NCBI GenBank assembly: GCA_017558065.1 | Contig: JAFYWK010000052.1 | Location: forward strand, 1-60,696 | DNA length: 60,696 nt | Direction of reading: 5' to 3' | Source: Paludibacteraceae bacterium | Lineage (GTDB): Bacteria; Bacteroidota; Bacteroidia; Bacteroidales; Paludibacteraceae | Shown here: positions 18,018 through 28,841 of the stretch, piece after piece | Numbering within the stretch: the first letter of the stretch is position 1 | Layout: the number at the start of each line of letters is the position of its first letter | Made by a program: the position numbers and the translations under genes | The notes under the pieces: model-generated | What the model saw: only the letters and a program-made list of their open reading frames with translations | What the model was told of the DNA's origin: nothing | The model's database searches: none

Positions 18018-18029
18018 TATATAATTAGT

Positions 18030-18050
18030 TATGAATTATGAACTATGAGT
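18030..18050. repeat. Heptamers in the purM leader
   Basis: Three contiguous 7-base units (tatgaat, tatgaac, tatgagt) lie within the 5' untranslated region of purM, 13 bases before the ATG on the minus strand. Confidence 0.6.
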
Positions 18051-18095
18051 GAAGAGTTGTTTTAGCAACTTTTTAGTGCAATTTAAAATCGGGTA

Positions 18096-18127
18096 CAAAA
18101 TTAGCATTTTTTTTTGAAATACGCAAG
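18096..18127 (-). promoter_or_regulatory. purM-purH promoter
   Basis: On the minus strand CTTG (18127-18124), N20 with an A9 tract, TAATTTTG (18103-18096). Confidence 0.75.
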
Positions 18128-18249
18128 GGAATATTGGAAAAGTTTTAGTCTATATTGAATTTGTAATTCAAGGGTGGCAAACTATGCTATTACTACTCAT
18201 AGTTCATACTATCACTTACGGGTTCATAACGGGTTTATATGCTACCTTC

Positions 18250-18293
18250 ACTATGTGATTACTATGAGATTACAATGTGATTACTATGTGATT
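18250..18293. repeat. Four tandem 11-base units
   Basis: Units actatgtgatt, actatgagatt, acaatgtgatt, actatgtgatt are contiguous, with weaker copies upstream to about 18180. They lie at the start of the 921-base gene-free gap 18018-18938. Confidence 0.85.
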
Positions 18294-18426
18294 CATATCC
18301 CTTGCTTATCCTATAGCAACACCCTTACCACTCCGACACCACTAGCCGAAGTTAGGCTGATACTACTTCATGCTACAGAATAGTAATTTACTTCTCTATT
18401 TGATTTAGATTTTCCAGATTTTCCGG

Positions 18427-18733
18427 ATTTTCCGTGATTTGAGATAAACCAGAAAACACGGAAAATACGGAAAACCTAATACATATTTTTTTCTTTCAGC
18501 ACAAACAACAAATCCGCATAATCAATTCTTTTTCATTCGATTATACGGATTCTCCTTATCACCTGATAACCTCTCACCTCCATCCTACGGACTTCCTGCG
18601 GACACATTCTTAGCCCACCTCAAAAGTCCGCAGGAATTGCTTCCAACATCCCTTCTCCCTGAAAATCAATGCACCATCTTAATCACGTAGGTTGACATTA
18701 TTGACACTTTTGGCACTTTCAATAATGCCAAAA
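18427..18733. other. Cluster of four hairpins in the gap left of the defence island
   Basis: Inverted repeats follow one another: 18427-18436/18457-18466 (10 pairs), 18511-18523/18539-18551 (12 of 13 pairs), 18593-18603/18626-18636 (11 pairs) and 18708-18715/18726-18733 (8 pairs). Near 18410-18432 the box gattttcc repeats with a period of about 9. No coding frame of interest is present. These could be terminators for the converging transcripts or remains of repeated elements. Confidence 0.55.
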
Positions 18734-18846
18734 TGCCAATATTGCCACATGTTTTTATATTTCGCGCGAGTATATTTTTTTGAAAAAAGTTTTCGTGTGC
18801 CGAAAATGAACTAACAAGAAATCCTTATAAGTTCGATTATTGGCTA

Positions 18847-18880
18847 CAAAAGTAGTATATCAAACTGCAACAATTGTCAT
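18847..18880 (-). repeat. Left copy of an imperfect direct repeat that flanks the defence island
   Basis: On the minus strand it contains GCAGTTTGAT followed 5 bases later by TACTTTTG (18854-18847). About 30 of 40 positions match 28161-28200 at the other end of the island, in the same orientation. It looks like a promoter, but no gene follows it. Confidence 0.5.
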
Positions 18881-18938
18881 AGTTTAATGTCTTAGAAAAA
18901 TTGCAAATAATTTATTGTTCCTATGATTTCATTGATAT

Positions 18939-19628
18939 TTAGAAATTAATTACTGATATTCCACCATCATTTATTATTTGCGAGACAGACTGAGCGCCGT
19001 TTTGGGTAATACAAATAGATGATTCAGGTTGTTGTACTTTGACAGGAACATCTGTATTAATTTCAGTATTTATGTCAACATCTAGTAATAACTCATCTTT
19101 TATATGAGCTATAAGTTTTTGAAATTGATTTGCCGAAAGTTGTTCGAATGAGAGAGTATTGATTTTTTGAATATATTCCCATGCTTTACCAAAATAAGTA
19201 AGTATAGCATTCACTTTTTCCAGTTCATTCAGAATAGGTCTATCTATATGTTCTTCGTTAGATAGGTTTTGTTGAAGTTGCGAAAAATACTTTTTCCAAT
19301 AGCTACATACTGTGCTATACATATCATAAGTACGACTAAAATCCTCCATATTTATCCAACGAACTCGATTGGAATTTATTCCGTTTTTTATAATAAGTGC
19401 TAATTCGTACATGCAATTAAGAGAATAAAAATAAGAATTAGATAGGACTACTAATACATTATCTGCTTGACCTATTTCGCGCTCAAATGCCTCTATATCA
19501 TGTCCATATCTACAATCTTTTTCATCAATATAATAATCAATATTAGATTGTTTTAAGCAAGGACATAGCCAATTTTTAACTATTGACTTTGCAGGTTGTT
19601 TCCAACTATATGAAATGTATATTTTCAT
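18939..19628 (-). CDS. TIR-domain effector with C-terminal amyloid-like motif
   Basis: A 229-residue protein. The TIR domain fills about 1-125 and starts at once with KIYISYSWK. It has the DEKDCRYGHDIEAFEREI helix region and SLNCMYELAL, where Glu75 is placed like the catalytic Glu of NAD-degrading TIRs. A helical stretch (about 95-190) follows, then a linker and a C-terminal motif, ITQNGAQSVSQIINDGGI (207-224). Nearly the same motif begins the NACHT protein encoded three bases upstream. By analogy with bacterial amyloid signalling motifs, the NTPase would template assembly of this protein and switch on NAD cleavage and abortive infection. The TIR fold and shared motif are seen; the mechanism is inferred. 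It is the last gene of the island. Confidence 0.85.
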   Translation of the reverse strand: MKIYISYSWKQPAKSIVKNWLCPCLKQSNIDYYIDEKDCRYGHDIEAFEREIGQADNVLVVLSNSYFYSLNCMYELALIIKNGINSNRVRWINMEDFSRTYDMYSTVCSYWKKYFSQLQQNLSNEEHIDRPILNELEKVNAILTYFGKAWEYIQKINTLSFEQLSANQFQKLIAHIKDELLLDVDINTEINTDVPVKVQQPESSICITQNGAQSVSQIINDGGISVINF

Positions 19629-19631
19629 GTT

Positions 19632-22600
19632 TTATTTGTCCAAATCGTTGAGACATTTGTTCAAGTAATAGTTAATATCTTCTTTCTCCAGCAGCTTATC
19701 CAATAAATCCATTGCACTTTCGAGAGAATAATCTGTGTTATCATACACACGCACATTATTGTATGCTTCGATGAGAATTTCCGTTATACTTTGTAATTCG
19801 TTGTACTCAATAGTATATTTTTGCGAAGTTGATTTCTTCTCATACAATATTGATAATAATTCTAAACAATAATGTGGATTAACTGTTGCTAAATACTTCA
19901 TGTATTCATAGATTCGGTATGAACAAAATACACATAATCGAGAATGAATAAATTTAGATAGGAATAGTTGGTAATCAATATTCTGCTCCCAATTACTAAG
20001 ATATTTAAATATCTCATCATATTCTTCAGCCAACTCTTTTTCTTCATATTGGAGATAACGCAATAAGGCTTCTTGCATTTGTTGAGCAAATGTAGCATGA
20101 AAATATTTACCAACAAAGTCAATAATCTTTTTTCGTGCTATAGGAGATTTATCTGCAAAGTTAAATAACATAGTTTTTGCACTCTCCTGTCCATTCAGCC
20201 ATGCGCGAAATAAAAAATCTGCAGTTACATCATTCCCTACTGTTGATTGCATTGCCATATTGAAATATGGTAATAGTTGTTTAAAGTCTTTATTAATAAA
20301 ATAAAGAATAGGATTAGCACTATGTACGGGAAGTTTAAAGTAATTAGGGTTGCCGTCTTTTGTAATTTCTAAAAATAGTTGAAGTGTCTTTTGATAATTT
20401 ACATTTAACAAACAAGCCATACGGAATAATATACCTACTTTGCTAGTAATAGATGCTATAGGAATAATTTGTTCTAGCACATTCAATATATCATCTGCAT
20501 AATTTTTGTCCCAACAAGTATGCATAAGAGAATCAATGGCTCTTCCTCGTTCCCTATTAAGTGGTAAATTATAATCAATATTATCTATTTCATCTTCATC
20601 TTTAGATGGATTTAAGACTATATTTCTCACGAAGTTATACACTTCTTGAGGCATATGCAATTGTTGTTTAATATAGTATTCAATACGCGAACACATTATT
20701 AAATTCGTAAGTGGCTGCTCTACATTATCACGATGTTGTATCTCCTTTATCAATAAGCAAAATAATTGATCAATCTTGTCTGGGGAATAATTACAGCGAA
20801 TAAGACTTTCTAACCCTTCTATGATATATTTAATATGAATAGATGAATCATGTAGAGCTTTTAAATAAATAGCATAAAACTTATCTGGTTTCTTTAATGC
20901 CTGTTGTGCAAAAGAATTTGCAACACCAGTAAGAGTCGGTTTTTCAAAATCTATTAAATCATCGTCATTATAAGAACGCATAGCATTAAGAATATCTGCT
21001 TCTTTCTCCATTTTTTCAAATACATTTTCAGGGAGTGAAGTATATCCTTCGTGTACTTCCATTTTATTCGGTGCCGTATTCTTTAAATCAGGATATTTTC
21101 TTTTCATGCTGATATAAAAACTATATTCTTCTGGAAAGTTTTTAAGCATTTGTTCAGGAACACAATGATAGTATTGAGCTCGTGTGTATCCTATTCTAGA
21201 CAAAGGATATTTCCTATTAGGATATGACAAATGCTTTTTTTCCCAATCGGGACTTATTTTTTTTATGCAATCAAAGAGTTCTGATAATTCCTGGGTAGAA
21301 ATGCCGCTCTTTACTATAGATTCAAACAATTGAATATAATAGTAAGTCAATACAGAAGAGTGATAAGTGCGATTGATATTTTTTATAAGATAATTTATAG
21401 CTCTTTTTCTATCTTGTAAAATGCCATGTCTCAAAACAGATGCTACAATAGTATGCATAATTACCAAATTTGTCTGTATCAATATAGACATTTTATTTTC
21501 AACCTCCTCTTTTTGATTCTTGTTTAGCAAATAGCATAAGTATGACCTCATGTCATTTACTAAGCATACATGAAAGTTAGACTCAAGTGATGTTTGTTGG
21601 TTGTAGTTCCAATATGCCATTGAACTCTTGATATCATCTTCCGTATCAAGTATTGTATTCCCTGCAATATAAGCTACTAAATCATAGGCAAATTGATATG
21701 CTTTGCCGGGGAAATGCTCTTTGAGTTTATCATATATATGTTTTGCTTCATATGGTACATTATTATGATAATTGAATATGTCCTCTGAAGTTTTTCTATA
21801 TAACAAAAACAAATATTTCTTCAACCTTTCAATGACCCAATCTGTATTATGAAAAATATTTGTTTCCATCATATGAGGGAACACTAAAATATCATTATTA
21901 ACATCCAAAAATTTAATAACATATTGTAAATCCTCTGTAAATTCTATTTGCCCTTGTCGTTCTAGCAGATTTATCAATCTGTTCTTATATAAAGTTGACA
22001 ACTTGGAATTGCATATTGTACGGATATATTGAATCTGTTCTTTAAAATTACGATATAGAGTTTTACTCAAAATCGTAAACATATAGTCCTGCAAGTTGTT
22101 CTCTATCGCAAAGAATCCCCCTCGCATATTTATCCAATTTTTATATAATATAAATCCAGCATAAGTAGTGATGGAATTTATGAAATGAAAAAGATACTGT
22201 TTGTTCGTGAAGATTCGTTGATAAATTAGTCTTTCTTCTAATTTAGTATAATTATCGAAATTGGCAATAATAGATATTGTTAAATGGCGTATGTGGAATC
22301 GATATTTATAACAACTTTCATTATCGGTAGTATCAAATAGAATCATTTGGACATTATGCAAAAATCCTTTTGAATCTGTAGTATGTTGGTATTCCAATAT
22401 TTGTTTTATATGGTTACGAACAAACAGTCCTTGGTGTTTCGTTTCAAAAAGGTCTTCTAATTTTTGCTGTTTTTCAAAAAATAATCGAGCAAAAACATAG
22501 TCAAATAAGGTCTGATGCATAAATTGCCACACATCCTTATTTTCGACTATTATTCCTTTCGATAGAAGATATTGACATTCTTTATGCCATGTCGAAGATA

Positions 22601-23555
22601 ACAAGGATTTATGAATAGATAATGTTTGTTTCTTATACAATAACGATACAAAATACCATAGAAAATCTATTAATTCAATAGTGTTACCCTGATAGTTATC
22701 AAGCATATTTTCCCATAATAAAGAATATAAGTCAGTTAGATTCTTTATGTTATATGCAGATTTATCTGAATGAACTTTACAAAATAATGATAAATTAAGT
22801 GGGTTAGATAATAATAGTAATAAATCGGGAGAGAGGTGTATATCTGATGGCAATCCATTTTCATATAAAGTTTTCCGTATTTCTTCTTCAGTTAATTGAT
22901 TAACTGTTATTAGTTTGCAGTGCCTCAAATCCGAGAATGATTGATCATAGTAAAAGTCATAAGGCCTACATGAGATTAGAATCCTTACATTAGGAATTTG
23001 GACCGCTTGATTGATTAAACCAATCATTTCAGCCAAGGGTTTTCGTTGAGATGATAGAACAGCAGATAAAGCATCTATTTGGTCTATAATCAAAATCGTT
23101 TTATATCGTTGTGATGCTTCTTCGATAGCTTTGATAATCGGTTTCCCTAAGTTGGCCTTTGAATTAATGTCTTGACTATCTTTTCCATCATAAAAAATAT
23201 CAGATTTAAAAGCCAGCACTTTGCAATCATCACGCTTTTGCAAATTTAGTAACACATCCTTTAGAATTACAGATTTACCACAACCTGCCTTTCCTAATAA
23301 AATGGCTATTCGCTGATCATTCAAACTATTATCTTGCGTTAAAGGAGTGTCAATCCATGAAAGAAATTGTTGGGTTTCATTTCTATCAATATGGAACCCA
23401 CCGATATTGCTAATATGGATTTCAAGTGCTGTAGATATATCAGCAAATGTTTGTATCGTCTGTGTTTGCAGTATACCACCTTCATTTACGACTGCTACAA
23501 TACTTTTTTCTCCATATTGCGTAATATTTGTATTTTTCAATTGGTTATCAGACAT
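19632..23555 (-). CDS. NACHT/STAND NTPase, NLR-like sensor with N-terminal amyloid-like motif
   Basis: A 1307-residue protein. The N-terminus carries ITQYGEKSIVAVVNEGGI (11-28), matching the C-terminus of the TIR protein. The NTPase has Walker A LLGKAGCGKS (about 86-95), Walker B TILIIDQIDAL (about 153-163), sensor ILISCRPYDF (about 192-201) and the PLNLSLFC helix typical of STAND proteins. A winged-helix-like region near 345-365 reads FMHQTLFDYVFARL. The remaining ~900 residues look all-helical and should form the sensor repeats; I recognise no specific ligand domain. No effector domain is fused, so signalling must pass to the adjacent TIR protein. ATG 23555 is preferred to TTG two codons earlier. 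The DNA is clearly AT-richer than the housekeeping neighbours, suggesting transfer. Confidence 0.85.
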   Translation of the reverse strand: MSDNQLKNTNITQYGEKSIVAVVNEGGILQTQTIQTFADISTALEIHISNIGGFHIDRNETQQFLSWIDTPLTQDNSLNDQRIAILLGKAGCGKSVILKDVLLNLQKRDDCKVLAFKSDIFYDGKDSQDINSKANLGKPIIKAIEEASQRYKTILIIDQIDALSAVLSSQRKPLAEMIGLINQAVQIPNVRILISCRPYDFYYDQSFSDLRHCKLITVNQLTEEEIRKTLYENGLPSDIHLSPDLLLLLSNPLNLSLFCKVHSDKSAYNIKNLTDLYSLLWENMLDNYQGNTIELIDFLWYFVSLLYKKQTLSIHKSLLSSTWHKECQYLLSKGIIVENKDVWQFMHQTLFDYVFARLFFEKQQKLEDLFETKHQGLFVRNHIKQILEYQHTTDSKGFLHNVQMILFDTTDNESCYKYRFHIRHLTISIIANFDNYTKLEERLIYQRIFTNKQYLFHFINSITTYAGFILYKNWINMRGGFFAIENNLQDYMFTILSKTLYRNFKEQIQYIRTICNSKLSTLYKNRLINLLERQGQIEFTEDLQYVIKFLDVNNDILVFPHMMETNIFHNTDWVIERLKKYLFLLYRKTSEDIFNYHNNVPYEAKHIYDKLKEHFPGKAYQFAYDLVAYIAGNTILDTEDDIKSSMAYWNYNQQTSLESNFHVCLVNDMRSYLCYLLNKNQKEEVENKMSILIQTNLVIMHTIVASVLRHGILQDRKRAINYLIKNINRTYHSSVLTYYYIQLFESIVKSGISTQELSELFDCIKKISPDWEKKHLSYPNRKYPLSRIGYTRAQYYHCVPEQMLKNFPEEYSFYISMKRKYPDLKNTAPNKMEVHEGYTSLPENVFEKMEKEADILNAMRSYNDDDLIDFEKPTLTGVANSFAQQALKKPDKFYAIYLKALHDSSIHIKYIIEGLESLIRCNYSPDKIDQLFCLLIKEIQHRDNVEQPLTNLIMCSRIEYYIKQQLHMPQEVYNFVRNIVLNPSKDEDEIDNIDYNLPLNRERGRAIDSLMHTCWDKNYADDILNVLEQIIPIASITSKVGILFRMACLLNVNYQKTLQLFLEITKDGNPNYFKLPVHSANPILYFINKDFKQLLPYFNMAMQSTVGNDVTADFLFRAWLNGQESAKTMLFNFADKSPIARKKIIDFVGKYFHATFAQQMQEALLRYLQYEEKELAEEYDEIFKYLSNWEQNIDYQLFLSKFIHSRLCVFCSYRIYEYMKYLATVNPHYCLELLSILYEKKSTSQKYTIEYNELQSITEILIEAYNNVRVYDNTDYSLESAMDLLDKLLEKEDINYYLNKCLNDLDK

Positions 23556-23652
23556 AGTCAAATAGTTTAGTTTTTAATATTGCTTAATATTTTAATTGTT
23601 TTATTATTCACACTGATTACTCTTTGTGCGCTATTTGCCCTCATATATACGA

Positions 23653-23664
23653 TGTAGTTCTACA
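23653..23664. promoter_or_regulatory. Possible operator between the R-M and NACHT genes
   Basis: TGTAGTTCTACA is a perfect 12-base palindrome in the 113-base gap before the NACHT gene. No clear TAnnTTTG box is present there, so it is unclear whether NACHT-TIR has its own promoter. Confidence 0.3.
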
Positions 23665-23668
23665 ATAT

Positions 23669-24847
23669 TTATTTTACTCCGACGAGATCACTCAATGGAC
23701 GAATTTTTGCCACATTAGTATATGCGCGCTGTTGGAGTTGGATTTCTTGGTCGTAAGGTATAGTTTTACTTGAATCAAAACGCAATACCGCATAATAAGG
23801 TGCGTTTTCTGCGCTAAATCCCAATGCTTGCAAATTCTCTGCTGTCCAAATTTGGAATCCCTTTTTGGTTAGTTTAAATAGTTGAGGATTCTTACCATTG
23901 TCATGCAACAACACATATCCTAAACGCTCAAAACCTTTTTGTACAAGCAATGAACCTTTACTATCTCCTGCTCGTAAATAGCACAACCCTTTTTCCAACA
24001 TTAACTGATAGTCTTTAGGGCGTGCGTGATTGACAAGTACCATCGTTTCCTCTGGTGTTTCACGCATTTTTTTGAGTAGTTTTTGCGCTTCTGTTGGATT
24101 ATCCAGTAACTCTCGGCGGCGCTTGCTTAACTCAATAAAACTTTTATCTTGCTCTATGCCTATAAACTTGCGACCTAATAGATTGGCAGCTATGCCTGTT
24201 GTGCTACTACCAGCAAATGGGTCGAGAATAGTATCGCCTTCGTTAGTAGAAGCCAACACAACGCGATAAAGCAAGCGCAATGCCTTTTGTGTAGGATGTT
24301 TGCCGCAAGTCTTTTCCCACATACCCACAGCAGGAATACGCCACACATCTGTCATTTGAGAACCGCCATTGAGTTGCTTCATGGTTTCATAGTTGAACTT
24401 GTGCGGTTTCTTCTCATGCTTGCGTGCCCAAATAACAAGTTCTGTAGAGAAGTTAAAATATCGGCACGACAAGTTTGGTGGTGGGTCAGATTTTTGCCAA
24501 GTAATGACATTTAGTATCTTATAACCCAACTCTTGCAGACAGCGTTGCACTACAAATATGTTGTGGTGTGTACCTGAAATCCAAATTGTACCATTGTCTT
24601 TGAGTTTTGGACGGCACAACGATAGCCATTGTTTGTTGAATTGGTAAATGTACTCAGGTGTTCCACCTTTGTCCCAATCACCTTTATCCACACACACTTG
24701 TTTGCCACTTTGCACACTTATTCCGCCATTACTTAAAAAGTAAGGTGGGTCAGCGAAGATTGCATCAATAGAGTTATCTTCTATTTCTTGCAATCGCTCC
24801 ATACAATCGCCAATCAGAAGAGTAAAATTAGAATATGTATTTATCAT
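23669..24847 (-). CDS. Beta-class DNA methyltransferase, DpnA-like, with C-terminal extension
   Basis: 392 residues. The motif order is that of beta-class N6-adenine methyltransferases: DPPY (33-36) first, then the target-recognition region (about 60-170), and the AdoMet-binding ILDPFAGSSTTGIAA (187-201) near residue 190. In DpnII systems the second enzyme (DpnA) has this form and methylates GATC, including in single strands. The protein is longer than classical DpnA; the last ~150 residues form an extension I do not recognise. Its ATG overlaps the stop of the unknown upstream gene by one base (TAATG at 24847), so translation is coupled. The start at 24847 is chosen over an 18-residue-longer frame that would run into that gene. 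Confidence 0.85.
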   Translation of the reverse strand: MINTYSNFTLLIGDCMERLQEIEDNSIDAIFADPPYFLSNGGISVQSGKQVCVDKGDWDKGGTPEYIYQFNKQWLSLCRPKLKDNGTIWISGTHHNIFVVQRCLQELGYKILNVITWQKSDPPPNLSCRYFNFSTELVIWARKHEKKPHKFNYETMKQLNGGSQMTDVWRIPAVGMWEKTCGKHPTQKALRLLYRVVLASTNEGDTILDPFAGSSTTGIAANLLGRKFIGIEQDKSFIELSKRRRELLDNPTEAQKLLKKMRETPEETMVLVNHARPKDYQLMLEKGLCYLRAGDSKGSLLVQKGFERLGYVLLHDNGKNPQLFKLTKKGFQIWTAENLQALGFSAENAPYYAVLRFDSSKTIPYDQEIQLQQRAYTNVAKIRPLSDLVGVK

Positions 24848-26178
24848 TACGCCATTAGCCCTCCTCCACCGATTCCTATTTCTGTATATGCAGTCGTCCA
24901 TCCTGTTTGTCCTAGAATACTAATAGATTTTGGAGGCATTAGTTTTTTATTTTCATTACATATTTCTTTAAAAGGACATTGTTTTAGTTTTTTATCTTTC
25001 GGTAATGACTTTACATATTCAGTCTGTAGAATAGCAATCTCTCCATCATCAGAAGAACAAGGCATAAGTCTTAACTTTAATTCAGCTAAAACATGTTTAT
25101 GTTCTTCTGAAAAGCAAACTTGACATTTGGAATTTCGTGGAGAATGCCATGCAAAACGATGCCCATTTTCACACTCATACATATATAAATTTTCCTTGCA
25201 GAATTGTCTTCCCACCACTCTATACACAAAATAATCCATTAAGCATGGACTCTCTAAAGATTCTGATGGATATTTGGCAGTCCATATTTCCCAAACTTTA
25301 CGCCACGCAATAGCATTCATTTTATCAATGTACGCATATTGATGACAAAAGATATCTAAGAAACTAGAAACCAATGGAATGGCTGTTTTTAAGATGCCTG
25401 TACGAAGAGCAACCTTGATGGTGTTAACATCACTTGCTACATCTATTTTATCAAAGTTATTTATATCAGTCCATATTCCAAGAACGTACATATCACGAAC
25501 TAGCATATCTGCTTTCTTATTGCCATAACCTGCACTAACGCAATTAATAAGAGCATTTCGAAAATCATAAATGTTGTTATCGTATTGTCCTATAAGTTCG
25601 TAAGGTGTACATCCATGAGATAGTATGAATTTAGCTATGTTTTCTGCATAAGTATTACGTTTGTCACTTTGGGACAGATTTGACAATTCGAGCTTGTTGA
25701 TAAATGACGCAGGATTATCAGCTATAAAATTAGGATCAAATGATGATGGATCATCTTTGTATATTGCAGCTAATTCAGAAAAAACACGTGACCCCCTAAA
25801 ATCTTGATTTGCAGTTAGCATTCGAATTTGACAAACTTGTTCATTAGTTAGACCACATTTATCATAGATTTGTGTGAATGCTTTACCATCTGTTAGGATA
25901 TATACATTATGAAGTGCCTCTGCTACTTCTTCGCACTTAACCTCATCTACGATACAATCTAGTATCTCCTCATGATTCTCTTCCCAATATTTATGAAAAT
26001 CTGATATATATTTCCATATTTGCCCAAAAGCCTCTACCCTACTAGTTTCTGTAGGATTGATACAATACAAAAATTCATTTAATAATTTGACAACTTTACG
26101 AGCCTCTTCAATCGTTAAATCATGATTACCATGAGAAATTTGCGTTAATTCTTGGTAAAATTTAGATAATGTATCCAT
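24847..26178 (-). CDS. Unknown protein in the R-M operon; HhH-like segment and zinc ribbon
   Basis: 443 residues, not recognised. The segment SAGYGNKKADMLVRDMYVLGIW (about 226-247, written here in part: GYGNKKADMLVRDM) resembles a helix-hairpin-helix of DNA glycosylase-type proteins. Around 335-365, YECENGHRFAWH plus KCQVC could form a zinc ribbon, and CPFKEIC near the C-terminus adds two cysteines. It lies between the DpnII-type nuclease (1-base gap) and the second methyltransferase (1-base overlap), so it is an integral member of the operon, yet it is absent from the classical three-gene DpnII set. A DNA-binding specificity or base-excision role is possible; none is claimed. Confidence 0.7.
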   Translation of the reverse strand: MDTLSKFYQELTQISHGNHDLTIEEARKVVKLLNEFLYCINPTETSRVEAFGQIWKYISDFHKYWEENHEEILDCIVDEVKCEEVAEALHNVYILTDGKAFTQIYDKCGLTNEQVCQIRMLTANQDFRGSRVFSELAAIYKDDPSSFDPNFIADNPASFINKLELSNLSQSDKRNTYAENIAKFILSHGCTPYELIGQYDNNIYDFRNALINCVSAGYGNKKADMLVRDMYVLGIWTDINNFDKIDVASDVNTIKVALRTGILKTAIPLVSSFLDIFCHQYAYIDKMNAIAWRKVWEIWTAKYPSESLESPCLMDYFVYRVVGRQFCKENLYMYECENGHRFAWHSPRNSKCQVCFSEEHKHVLAELKLRLMPCSSDDGEIAILQTEYVKSLPKDKKLKQCPFKEICNENKKLMPPKSISILGQTGWTTAYTEIGIGGGGLMA

Positions 26179-26179
26179 G

Positions 26180-27013
26180 TCATTTTATGTTTTTGATAAA
26201 TTCTTCTATGGAAGTCAAATTATATATACTTGGTATGATATTAAACGCCTCTTGCAATTTGTTCTTAGCCGAGTTCCAGCCAATACCATCTGTTATCCAC
26301 ACAAACTCAAAACCATCTACAGCATTGATTTTAGGTGCAATATCAGAATAAGCACGAGCCACTTCGTTGAGTTTAGAGCCTCCGCCAGAATAGAAGTTTA
26401 CCTCAATTAAGTGAATCTTTTGTGGAGTTTCAATAACAAAGTCAAAGCGCTTTTCGTCATCGCCTAATGCCTTTGTCATTTCTGCCCATTCACTAGAATA
26501 CACCTCTGTACGATAGTCAATGCCATTGTTCTCAAAAATCTCAGCCACTACATTCTCCATAACATGACCACTACGATTTTTGCGAGCATTGGAATCCAAA
26601 CCTGTTTCTACACCAAACACATAGTCAACCAAATTAGTAATCTTTTGCGATTGTAAAACCTCAGCTAATCCTGTGTCATTTAGAAATTCCATCACACCAT
26701 CTACTGACTCAAATAAAGAATCAAGTACAACACACTCACCCAATGAATTAAGAACTTTCTTTTTTCCTTCACTGCGCACTGCTATTAAAATATCCATCAC
26801 ATTGAAAGCTGATTTATCGCGCCTCCAAATTGTTTCTACTGCACTTTGTATGTCAGTTGCACCAATTAAACTATTAAGCATGCAAAGACTGAGTTTGATG
26901 TCTTCCACATTGTCGTGAATCTTATCAAAGTCACAGAAGAAACCAAGTGTTTGATTGGTTTCTTTCAATTGCGACATAAAAGTTGCAAATTCTGTTGGAG
27001 TGTGTGCTGCCAT
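26180..27013 (-). CDS. dpnB: DpnII/MboI-family type II restriction endonuclease (GATC)
   Basis: 277 residues of the DpnII family. The signature region is GLDSNARKNRSGHVMENVV (138-156), with a nuclease core formed by Glu in VMENVV, RFDFVI (Asp181) and LIEVNFYSGGGSK (192-204). DpnII enzymes cut unmethylated GATC. The gene is one base downstream of the Dam-type methyltransferase and one base upstream of the unknown 443-residue gene. Length is typical. Specificity is inferred from the family and partners. Confidence 0.9.
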   Translation of the reverse strand: MAAHTPTEFATFMSQLKETNQTLGFFCDFDKIHDNVEDIKLSLCMLNSLIGATDIQSAVETIWRRDKSAFNVMDILIAVRSEGKKKVLNSLGECVVLDSLFESVDGVMEFLNDTGLAEVLQSQKITNLVDYVFGVETGLDSNARKNRSGHVMENVVAEIFENNGIDYRTEVYSSEWAEMTKALGDDEKRFDFVIETPQKIHLIEVNFYSGGGSKLNEVARAYSDIAPKINAVDGFEFVWITDGIGWNSAKNKLQEAFNIIPSIYNLTSIEEFIKNIK

Positions 27014-27014
27014 A

Positions 27015-27887
27015 TTAGATATAGTTTCGGATTAATAATTCGGTTAGTTTGCCTCGTTTGTTTGGATTGGCATTGATACTTCGCGCTGCCCAAACGCGTT
27101 CAATTTGATATTGCATATAGAGGTCATCAAAAAAGCCATCTTGACAATCTGAATTGCTTAACATAAAATGATGACCAGCGGCTTGTACTTGATCACAAAA
27201 ATCTTTCAGTCGCTTTTGTGCCAAATCATTAAACGCTTCTTTAGTGTAGTCATTAAAACTACTTGTAGCATTTAGCGGACGATATGGAGGGTCAAAATAG
27301 AAGAATGAATTGCCGTGTGCATGATTGAGAGTTTGAGTATAGTCGCCTGTCAAAATTTCAACCTTTTGCAGTAGTTCGCTATCTGCAAAGATTGTATTAG
27401 GGTCACAAATCATAGGTGTTTCGTAGCGACCAAAAGGAACATTGAACAAGCCCGATTTGTTTACTCTGTACAAACCGTTAAAGCAGGTGCGATTGAGAAA
27501 AAAGAATAATGTAGTGTTGCGTATTGGGTCAAGTGCTTTCGTATTAAACTCCGTACGCATAAGCATAAAGAATTGTTTTCGGCTATCTTCTGAACGTAGC
27601 GAGTAGTACTCTTTTTGAATCTCAGCAAGAGAATCAACCAAAAGTTGTGGAAACTGTTTGACCACTTTATAGCATGTAGTCAAATCTTCGTTAATGTCGT
27701 TAATGACTGCCGACTGAATGTTGGAGTGTGTCTGCAACATATAGAAGAGCATTGCTCCTCCGCCTACAAAAGGCTCAATGTAAGTGACATTCTCCCATTG
27801 GTCAAAGTCAGCTGGAAGCATTGCTTCGAGTTGGTCAATGAGTTGCGTCTTTCCGCCTACCCATTTGACAAATGGTTTCGCTTTCAT
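27015..27887 (-). CDS. dpnM: Dam-family (D12 class) adenine methyltransferase, DpnM-like
   Basis: 290 residues in alpha-class order: FVKWVGGKTQL (6-16) at the N-terminus, EPFVGGGAML (38-47) for AdoMet binding, and DPPYRPL (199-205) as catalytic motif IV near the C-terminus. The central NRTCFNGLYRVNKSGLFNVP is typical of GATC-methylating Dam/DpnM enzymes. It is the protective methylase of the R-M operon and precedes the nuclease gene, so the host is methylated first. The zinc-ribbon gene lies 19 bases upstream. Confidence 0.93.
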   Translation of the reverse strand: MKAKPFVKWVGGKTQLIDQLEAMLPADFDQWENVTYIEPFVGGGAMLFYMLQTHSNIQSAVINDINEDLTTCYKVVKQFPQLLVDSLAEIQKEYYSLRSEDSRKQFFMLMRTEFNTKALDPIRNTTLFFFLNRTCFNGLYRVNKSGLFNVPFGRYETPMICDPNTIFADSELLQKVEILTGDYTQTLNHAHGNSFFYFDPPYRPLNATSSFNDYTKEAFNDLAQKRLKDFCDQVQAAGHHFMLSNSDCQDGFFDDLYMQYQIERVWAARSINANPNKRGKLTELLIRNYI

Positions 27888-27906
27888 TGTTAATTTATTT
27901 TATTCG

Positions 27907-28125
27907 TTAATTTTCTTCATCCCATGTTGTATAATATGAAGTACCTTTACCATCGGCATACATTTGTTCGAAATCTTCATCTGAATAATAGTGATGCAGA
28001 CATTCATCCGAGCAATAATGCTCTCTACCGTCATCAATGCAATAGCCCTCTGTCATTCGTTTTCCACAATGATCGCAAATGCGAAAACCAATACATTCAA
28101 CAAACTCATCATGAATACCGTCCAT
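27907..28125 (-). CDS. Small zinc-ribbon protein, first gene of the R-M operon
   Basis: 72 residues with two cysteine pairs spaced for a zinc site (CDHCGKRM and HYCSDEC), and an acidic, tyrosine-rich C-terminus (YYSDEDFEQMY). Such short zinc-ribbon proteins are frequent in Bacteroidales accessory regions; their role is not known to me. As the leading gene before dpnM it might regulate the operon, in the position of a controller protein, though it has no recognisable helix-turn-helix. It is read from the promoters at 28167 and 28267. Confidence 0.7.
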   Translation of the reverse strand: MDGIHDEFVECIGFRICDHCGKRMTEGYCIDDGREHYCSDECLHHYYSDEDFEQMYADGKGTSYYTTWDEEN

Positions 28126-28160
28126 AATCTTTGCGTTTTTTAGTTAGTAATTTTTGAAAT

Positions 28161-28200
28161 CGTCTGCAAAATTACTACATCAAACTGCTAAAACTTGTCA
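28161..28200 (-). promoter_or_regulatory. Promoter of the R-M operon; right copy of the island-flanking repeat
   Basis: On the minus strand GCAGTTTGAT is followed by TAATTTTG (28174-28167). A YTTG box is missing at the usual distance, unlike the housekeeping promoters. The same arrangement recurs at 18847-18880. A 6-pair hairpin lies around 28181-28205. Confidence 0.5.
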
Positions 28201-28266
28201 GTTTGTCGGAAAAAGTTATTTTTTTTGCTTTTTTCGTATTTTTGATGAAGTTTTTATTTCAAGCCG

Positions 28267-28298
28267 CAAAGATACAATTTTTTTTTGAGATATGCAAG
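28267..28298 (-). promoter_or_regulatory. Housekeeping-type promoter upstream of the R-M operon
   Basis: On the minus strand CTTG (28298-28295), N20 with an A9 tract, TATCTTTG (28274-28267). Nearly identical over about 50 bases to the promoter at 1653-1684. It could add a constitutive level of the R-M genes. Confidence 0.7.
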
Positions 28299-28343
28299 AA
28301 AAGAGTGATTTTTTATTTATAGAACACGCTGATTAATATAAAG

Positions 28344-28448
28344 TTTTTTAGGAATGGAGTAAACGGCTTTAGGATTTTAGTCAACTTTTTTAGGAATTTG
28401 GACAACCTTTTTAGGAATTGAGTCAAGTATTTTAGGTTATATTAACAA
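28344..28448. repeat. Five 21-base units, each of three heptamers
   Basis: The units start at 28344, 28365, 28386, 28407 and 28428. Each reads roughly tttttta-ggaattn-agtcaac. They lie in the 716-base gap 28126-28841 right of the defence island. There are no spacers, so it is not a CRISPR array. Confidence 0.85.
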
Positions 28449-28549
28449 ATAGCACTTTTCGTAGGCAAGGAGTTGTACCGTTGTTCTGTCGGTCTTCTCC
28501 CGCTCATCGGTCGGTAAAATGAGGGACGGTATAAGAGAGGGAAAAGAAT

Positions 28550-28692
28550 GGGCAATCTTAATAAAAGTACTTTTTTGACTTTCGGAGTTCTTAGGTCGTT
28601 CCTTGGTTCTTCTTTGGTTCGTCCCTGGTTTTTGACACGGGAGAATTTGGGTAGGTACAAAGGAAGGGAATCTTAATAAATGTGCTTTTTTG
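28550..28692. repeat. 29-base direct repeat around an 11-base tandem array
   Basis: Copies at 28550-28578 and 28664-28692 share aatcttaataaa and cttttttga. Between them, 28587-28630 consists of four 11-mers (gttcttaggtc, gttccttggtt, cttctttggtt, cgtccctggtt). The rest of the gap to the purL terminator shows no gene. Confidence 0.7.
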
Positions 28693-28790
28693 AAAAAGAA
28701 CCCGAATAAAAATCGGGGCTAATTGACAAAGAAAGCAAGAAAAGTGCAAAAACACATTAGTGTAGAGTGTAAAGTGTAGAGGCAAGGATA

Positions 28791-28823
28791 AAAAATAGAG
28801 CATATCGGGTGATATGCTCTATT
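28791..28823 (-). terminator. Terminator of the menA-to-purL transcript
   Basis: ATAGAGCATATC (28796-28807) pairs perfectly with 28812-28823 over a GGGT loop. On the minus strand a run of T follows (28795-28791). It stands 18 bases after the purL stop. Confidence 0.85.
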
Positions 28824-28841
28824 TTGGGGTATATAGGCGGT

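What the first reader, a model, noticed from the sequence alone, without database searches (positions are those of the whole stretch)
18939..23555. Two-gene TIR/NACHT system joined by a shared amyloid-like motif
The TIR protein ends with ITQNGAQSVSQIINDGGI and the NACHT protein, encoded three bases upstream, starts (residues 11-28) with ITQYGEKSIVAVVNEGGI: 9 of 18 identical and 4 conservative. Each motif sits at the end facing the partner's functional domain. In bacterial amyloid signalling sequences (BASS; described for NLR-associated motifs, related in logic to fungal HET-s and animal RHIM) an NLR N-terminal motif templates the same motif at the C-terminus of an effector encoded next door. 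This predicts ligand sensing by the ~900-residue helical region, NTPase oligomerisation, motif nucleation, TIR filament formation and NAD loss. The sensor region is not one I recognise.
Basis: partly seen in the sequence, partly recalled or inferred. Interest (0 to 1): 0.9.

Follow-up and report, generated by a model that had tools for sequence, protein, structure and literature searches.

The report
NACHT sensor and TIR share tag
Two neighbouring genes in a Bacteroidales genome encode a large NLR-like sensor and a TIR enzyme that carry matching 20-residue tags, and because relatives put the same tag on quite different partner proteins, the tag most likely works as a self-assembling plug that wires a sensor to interchangeable effector proteins.

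Summary
A NACHT protein (19632-23555, minus) and a TIR protein (18939-19628, minus, 3 bases away) share a motif at receptor N-terminus and effector C-terminus: 9 of 18 identical; 2 of 20,000 shuffles reach the score. In related loci, 15 of 15 motif-bearing receptors whose next gene is readable are followed by a motif-bearing effector: 13 TIR proteins and 2 single-helix membrane proteins of 61 and 64 aa. Fifteen related loci whose receptor lacks the motif contain no copy, though 5 have short flanks. The motif label changes at least 3 times on the receptor tree, own pairs resemble each other more than crossed pairs (3 of 20,000 permutations), and codons do not indicate recent copying. This supports a homotypic coupling motif strongly. 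Against: a profile built without the window's own branch misses the window motifs. TIR is already a reported BASS effector; the Bacteroidales hosts, motif pattern and membrane mini-protein partner look new in the papers held.

The parts
19632..23555 (-). NACHT receptor gene, 1307 aa
   Evidence: ORF; Pfam NACHT 34.5 bits, cut-off 26.7; homologues
23469..23525 (-). Receptor-side coupling motif (ITQYGEKSIVAVVNEGGIL), near the N-terminus
   Evidence: Pairwise score 52, 2 of 20,000 shuffles; profile match 2.7e-6 with a profile that contains this row; not found by a profile without the window and L021 rows
22860..23309 (-). NACHT NTPase domain (residues 83-232)
   Evidence: Pfam PF05729
19635..22544 (-). 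C-terminal region, presumed sensor (970 aa from just before the conserved HQTLFDY), function unknown
   Evidence: Conserved with 18 homologues, 20-46% identity to the window; weak match to PDB 9n00 over profile positions 2-133 only
18939..19628 (-). TIR effector gene, 229 aa
   Evidence: Pfam TIR_2 45.1 bits, cut-off 28
19380..19622 (-). TIR domain as matched by Pfam (residues 3-83)
19404..19406 (-). Glu75, invariant in 11 aligned TIR effectors; catalytic glutamate by recalled analogy with TIR NADases
   Evidence: invariant column; catalytic role recalled, not tested
18951..19010 (-). Effector-side coupling motif (ITQNGAQSVSQIINDGGISV), at the C-terminus
   Evidence: (1.7e-5, profile contains this row)

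Best explanation
A two-gene receptor-effector defence module. The NACHT receptor senses an invader with its large C-terminal region and oligomerises. This brings its N-terminal 20-residue motifs together, and they template the same motif at the C-terminus of the TIR protein by homotypic beta-stacking, most likely as a small signalling amyloid of the BASS / HET-s kind. Clustered TIR domains become active NADases and stop or kill the cell. Shown by sequence: the paired motif, its co-occurrence in receptor and next gene, pair-specific likeness, conservation above its flanks, and re-use on different effectors. Inferred: ligand sensing, oligomerisation, amyloid form, direction of templating, NAD cleavage, anti-phage role.
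For: Motif in receptor and next effector gene in 15 of 15 evaluable loci, effectors being 13 TIR and 2 membrane mini-proteins. No copy in 15 related loci whose receptor lacks it. At least 3 changes of the motif label on a tree of 22 receptor cores, with strong branches. Own-pair likeness 49.8 against 41.4 for crossed pairs, 3 of 20,000 permutations, n=15. Same codon at 70 of 140 shared residues, 61.7 expected. Motif identity 0.51 against 0.23 in the linker of 12 TIR effectors and 0.45 against 0.18 in 15 receptors. In farther homologues a SEFIR (3.6e-15) or caspase (2.2e-13) domain is fused where the motif sits. In 393 genomes of the order the profile reaches E 1e-3 at 4 places only, all receptor N-termini or effector C-termini of such pairs (that profile contains those rows). 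Architecture equals that described for BASS, for which TIR effectors are reported (PMC7889193, three of four parts read).
Against: A profile without the window and L021 rows does not find their motifs at E 1; restricted to the four proteins its best hits are on the first half of the motif in the window pair, but weak (7.9 and 2.2 bits). Own effector is not always the best match: ranks 1.5 to 12 of 15. In L030 about 90 residues follow the motif, in L027 a PLD domain follows it, and in L032 and L038 a membrane stretch of about 130 residues precedes it, so the terminal position is not strict. Two published BASS3 or BASS3-like peptides show no profile match and only marginal likeness (66 of 2000 shuffles each). 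No direct evidence of fibres, NAD loss or phage defence.
Confidence: 0.62

Rival explanations
1. Homotypic but not amyloid: two short beta strands and an N-x-G turn pair in a discrete, finite receptor-effector complex. Recruitment, not templating, activates the TIR protein, as proposed for helical effector-associated domains.
For: All coupling evidence fits equally. The motif can lie inside a protein (L027, L030) or behind a membrane stretch (L032, L038). No match of 32 motif rows to Pfam amyloid-motif families.
Against: Twenty residues with two glycines and an asparagine turn are short for a stable folded dock; the layout (NLR N-terminus, effector C-terminus, same motif) is the one found for amyloid pairs (PMC7889193).
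Confidence: 0.24
2. The motif keeps the pair inactive: receptor and TIR protein form a resting complex through it, and ligand binding releases the TIR protein.
For: Co-occurrence and pair-specific likeness do not tell activation from restraint.
Against: The motif stands where effector domains are fused in other homologues, and membrane mini-proteins with nothing but one helix and the motif fit recruitment better. Inference.
Confidence: 0.06
3. Shared descent without function in signalling: a remnant of a split fusion gene or of DNA-level copying.
For: The genes are adjacent and related loci share ancestry.
Against: Synonymous codons are near expectation (70 of 140 against 61.7), while the motif is much better conserved than its flanks; unrelated effectors carry it.
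Confidence: 0.05
4. Chance likeness in the window, unrelated to the motif of the relatives.
For: Only 9 of 18 identities; held-out profile misses it.
Against: 2 of 20,000 shuffles; best of 82 comparisons in the window; same position in homologous receptor and TIR proteins; the closest relative L021 (46% identity over the C-terminal region) has a pair too.
Confidence: 0.03

Closest known systems
BASS, NLR-associated bacterial amyloid signalling sequences (Dyrka et al. 2020, J Mol Biol, not held; seen through PMC7889193 in three of four parts and through passages of PMC8086366, PMC9815663, PMC12261475)
   Same: NLR N-terminal motif and effector C-terminal motif of the same sequence type in adjacent genes; TIR named there as a less frequent effector; motif of about 20 residues
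   Different: Usual effector there is the Bell domain and hosts are mainly filamentous actinobacteria and cyanobacteria; here TIR, membrane mini-proteins of 61-64 aa and a PLD-domain protein in Bacteroidales; no detectable match to two published BASS3 or BASS3-like peptides; BASS1-10 profiles not tested
HET-S / NWD2 and other fungal NLR amyloid pairs (PMC7889193)
   Same: Logic: receptor N-terminal motif templates the same motif at the effector C-terminus, genes adjacent
   Different: No sequence match; effector there is a HeLo pore-former, here mostly TIR
bNACHT / Avs antiphage STAND proteins
   Same: NACHT-type NTPase with a large C-terminal region; receptor profile matches PDB 9n00 at 6.3e-29 over NTPase and following region
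   Different: Only partial matches to PADLOC PDC-M54A (3e-12) and, in two homologues, Avs2 (6e-6 and 2.5e-10); NCBIfam EruA 19.5 bits against a cut-off of 1000. Those systems, as recalled, mostly fuse the effector
Effector-associated domains, EADs (PMC8195603, passages)
   Same: Small homotypic adaptor on receptor and on effectors of the same operon, with varied effectors including TIR
   Different: EADs are alpha-helical domains; this is a 20-residue motif with a strand-turn-strand pattern

Membership tests
BASS NLR-effector pair | Same motif at NLR N-terminus and at C-terminus of an effector encoded next door | tested here: met
   Window pair; 15 of 15 evaluable loci, with the motif internal in the L030 effector
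BASS NLR-effector pair | Match to one of the BASS1-10 profiles | not testable with these tools
   Profiles and the founding paper not held; two published BASS3 or BASS3-like peptides do not match the motif profile
BASS NLR-effector pair | Amyloid or prion behaviour of the motif | not testable with these tools
   Needs peptides; structure prediction switched off
BASS NLR-effector pair | Effector of a known BASS-associated type (Bell, less often CHAT or TIR) | tested here: met
   TIR_2 above cut-off in the window; TIR reported with BASS in PMC7889193
Pfam amyloid-motif families (HET-S, NACHT_sigma, Ses_B named in PMC8086366; RHIM recalled) | Pfam match of the motif | tested here: not met
   0 of 32 rows match these at E up to 10; one row hits Curlin_rpt at 0.011. 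Short queries, low power
NACHT STAND receptor | NACHT domain above Pfam cut-off | tested here: met
   34.5 bits against 26.7
Named bNACHT or Avs family | Full-length match to a defence-system model | tested here: not met
   Partial PADLOC matches only, PDC-M54A and mad8; EruA 19.5 bits, cut-off 1000
TIR NADase effector | TIR domain above Pfam cut-off | tested here: met
   45.1 bits against 28
TIR NADase effector | Conserved catalytic glutamate | tested here: met
   Glu75 invariant in 11 aligned effectors; that it is the catalytic one is recalled
TIR NADase effector | NAD cleavage on activation | not testable with these tools
   Needs an assay
Effector-associated domain (EAD) system | Alpha-helical adaptor domain shared by receptor and effector | tested here: not met
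   Shared element is 20 residues with two glycines and strand-like pattern; no Pfam EAD match

The most novel reading that the evidence does not exclude
A signalling-amyloid motif family of Bacteroidales (consensus IxQxG[ED]KSIYIExNxGxIxI), outside BASS1-10 and outside filamentous bacteria, that acts as a common plug: one receptor class is wired to interchangeable effectors (NADase, PLD-domain protein, and a 61-residue single-helix membrane protein that would be among the smallest receptor-templated killers), with repeated swaps between motif, helical-looking and fused N-terminal modules.
Probability: 0.48. Interest if true: 0.82.

Novelty: new variant of a known kind. Interest (0 to 1): 0.66.

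Why it matters
The papers seen place NLR amyloid signalling mainly in filamentous or multicellular bacteria and tie it to multicellular life (PMC7889193; passage of PMC9815663). A paired-motif system in Bacteroidales, with several members from rumen, omasum, colon or faeces by their record titles, would loosen that tie. The module is compact, comes with natural effector swaps and a ready specificity test (own pair against crossed pair), so amyloid signalling in bacterial immunity becomes testable in ordinary laboratory strains. The 61-64 aa membrane partner offers a minimal system: one helix plus one motif.

Tried and rejected
Chance and DNA-level copying were tested and rejected. Relatives in viral contigs were looked for with the TIR protein and with the receptor alignment, and in phage records with the Segatella copri receptor: none found; the two viral-contig scans start from short exact patterns, so distant relatives can be missed. 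The motif profile against solved structures gave nothing. The nature of PDB 9n00 could not be established. Structure of motif, TIR and sensor could not be predicted. A 35-nt direct repeat at 77% identity near both ends of the insert was judged too weak to be an attachment site. The 'not in print' question: ten searches found no paper with this motif or a Bacteroidales case; ('amyloid signaling motif' with 'Bacteroid') returned none. The founding BASS paper and its supplementary tables were not available, so I do not claim that the motif is unpublished. Papers: PMC7889193 three of four parts; PMC12261475, PMC8086366, PMC9815663, PMC12881547 and PMC8195603 as passages; all others as search listings only.

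Full report
WHAT IS THERE. The window is a whole contig of a 2.4 Mb assembly in 83 contigs, of the order Bacteroidales by its kinship with genome G147, whose contig equals the Porphyromonas pasteri record L033 in length and sequence. On the minus strand a 1307-aa NACHT protein is followed after 3 bases by a 229-aa TIR protein. The N-terminus of the first and the C-terminus of the second share an ungapped stretch, 9 of 18 identical. Of 20,000 shuffles of both ends 2 reach the score; among 41 adjacent same-strand ORF pairs of the window, 82 end comparisons, it scores 52 and the next best 30. Alone, the pair would be suggestive; the case rests on relatives.

RELATIVES. Receptor homologues are rare: 6 of 393 genomes sampled from the order at E 1e-5 and 4 of 395 from the phylum at E 1e-20, each count with the window's own genome. 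One scan of 84,980 species genomes, which starts from short exact patterns and so is not exhaustive, gave 19 loci; a plasmid search gave one more in Segatella copri. With the window, 17 receptors carry the motif: window, L012, L021, L023-L027, L029, L030, L032-L038. L025 and L032 end before the next gene is readable. In the other 15 the next gene, or in L033 the next but one and in L023 the second piece of a frame-split gene, carries the motif. Thirteen of the 15 are TIR proteins. Nine of the 13 come with a shared domain of about 170 aa: fused in L012, L026, L027, L030, L035, L036 and L038, in the first piece of the split L023 gene, and as a separate ORF in L033; window, L021, L024 and L034 lack it. 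Two of the 15, L029 (Bacteroides fragilis Q1F2) and L037, are proteins of 61 and 64 aa with one hydrophobic helix and the motif at the very end. L027 and L038 have one more motif-bearing gene each; the two are homologous (48% identity), and the L027 protein goes on into a PLD domain (1.5e-21) behind the motif.

THE MOTIF. Over 34 copies glycine 16 is invariant, glycine 5 is in 33, asparagine 14 in 31, glutamine 3 in 30, with hydrophobic residues prevailing at 1, 9, 11, 18 and 20. The pattern suggests strand, N-x-G turn, strand. It is better conserved than its flanks: mean pairwise identity 0.51 against 0.23 in 12 TIR effectors, 0.45 against 0.18 in 15 receptors. A profile of 32 copies run over 393 genomes of the order reaches E 1e-3 at four places, the receptor N-terminus and TIR C-terminus of the window and the same two of G147; seven further places lie between 0.01 and 0.05. 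Over 395 genomes of the phylum it reaches 1e-3 at the two window places and one more at 0.0085; over 26 genomes of G147's genus at three places, the third on a contig of 3,907 bases. Those profiles contain the window and G147 rows. A profile without the window and L021 rows does not find their motifs at E 1; a profile without the L029 and L037 rows finds their two mini-proteins (4.4e-7, 0.0011) but not their receptors. So the window belongs to a diverged branch whose motif is tied to the others by place in homologous proteins, not by an independent profile hit.

IT IS A COUPLING MODULE. Motifs of one locus resemble each other more than motifs of different loci: 49.8 against 41.4 by BLOSUM62, 3 of 20,000 permutations, n=15; by identity 128 of 20,000; within the main clade of 11 pairs 339 of 20,000. 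Own effector is not always best, ranks 1.5 to 12 of 15, and the loci are related, so these are not independent draws. Shared residues use the same codon in 70 of 140 cases, 61.7 expected, so the likeness is kept at protein level. Fifteen related loci whose receptor lacks the motif contain no copy (best E 0.2); five of these (L010, L011, L018-L020) were fetched with flanks of about 1.5 kb and may not reach the neighbour. On a tree of 22 receptor cores the motif label needs at least three changes, forced by strong branches: L022, which lacks the motif and has a frame-broken TIR neighbour without it, groups with window and L021, and L028, which lacks it, groups with L029 and L037. Some rows sit on long branches (L013, L031, L039, L022). 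Farther homologues have a SEFIR (3.6e-15) or caspase (2.2e-13) domain fused at this end. The motif thus stands where an effector is fused in others, which is the strongest sequence argument that its job is to bring in the effector.

MECHANISM. Most likely chain: ligand, receptor oligomer, stacked N-terminal motifs, templated effector motifs, clustered TIR, NAD loss. Receptor oligomerisation and TIR NADase action follow from established knowledge of NACHT and TIR families (recalled; TIR domains that cleave NAD are also in the passages of PMC8195603). The templating step is inferred from motif anatomy and from the BASS and fungal systems described in PMC7889193. Amyloid against a finite beta dock is not decided here. 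I put the odds that the motif couples receptor to effector at about 0.9 and that it does so by amyloid-like templating at about 0.62.

COMPARISON AND NOVELTY. It works like a BASS pair. The profile and assay tests that would settle membership could not be run, so membership is open. TIR effectors with BASS are reported (PMC7889193), so that pairing is not new in itself. New as far as the papers seen show: Bacteroidales hosts, this motif pattern, a 61-64 aa membrane partner, a PLD partner, and repeated swaps of the N-terminal module on one receptor class. I rate it a new variant of a known kind.

SETTING. In four relatives of the genus the purL and purM matches end 20 to 57 bases apart (L064-L067), a fifth has a different insert of about 3.3 kb there (L062), a sixth contig ends there (L063), and the window has 10.8 kb with this pair and a DpnII-type restriction system. 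Six of the eight relatives with a purM match were looked at. A variable defence cargo at a fixed site fits.

Noticed in passing
window 18018-28841: The pair and a DpnII-type restriction system sit in an insert between purM and purL; four relatives have these genes 20-57 bases apart and one has a different 3.3 kb insert (symporter-like and leucine-rich-repeat-like genes by eye) at the same site.
   Followed up: partly
window 23669-27887: DpnII-type system (two DNA methylases, DpnII endonuclease 5.1e-100) with an extra 443-aa protein at 24847-26178 that matches nothing in Pfam, PADLOC or NCBIfam and has a cysteine-rich, zinc-ribbon-like end by eye.
   Followed up: partly
L032:7623-8060, L038:5286-5740: In these two receptors a stretch of about 130 aa with three hydrophobic segments precedes the motif in the same ORF, as if the receptor were membrane-bound.
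   Followed up: partly
L012, L026, L027, L030, L035, L036, L038 effectors (first about 170 aa); L033:11932-12444: A conserved domain of about 170 aa stands before TIR in nine of thirteen TIR effectors, in L033 as its own ORF; Pfam gives no convincing match for the L033 copy.
   Followed up: partly
L027:13133-14320, L038:10800-11549: Second motif-bearing gene beside the TIR effector: an uncharacterised domain of about 210 aa plus motif, followed by a PLD domain in L027 only.
   Followed up: partly
L021:5413-7974: The closest relative has, directly before the receptor gene, an 853-aa protein with membrane segments and a P-loop (KAP-like by eye) that is absent from the window.
   Followed up: no
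window 28341-28445: Imperfect 21-base tandem repeats in the intergenic stretch beside purL.
   Followed up: no
L012:1-3503: On the Segatella copri plasmid the module lies near an AAA ATPase and UvrD-helicase gene pair that recalls a Gabija-type system by eye.
   Followed up: no
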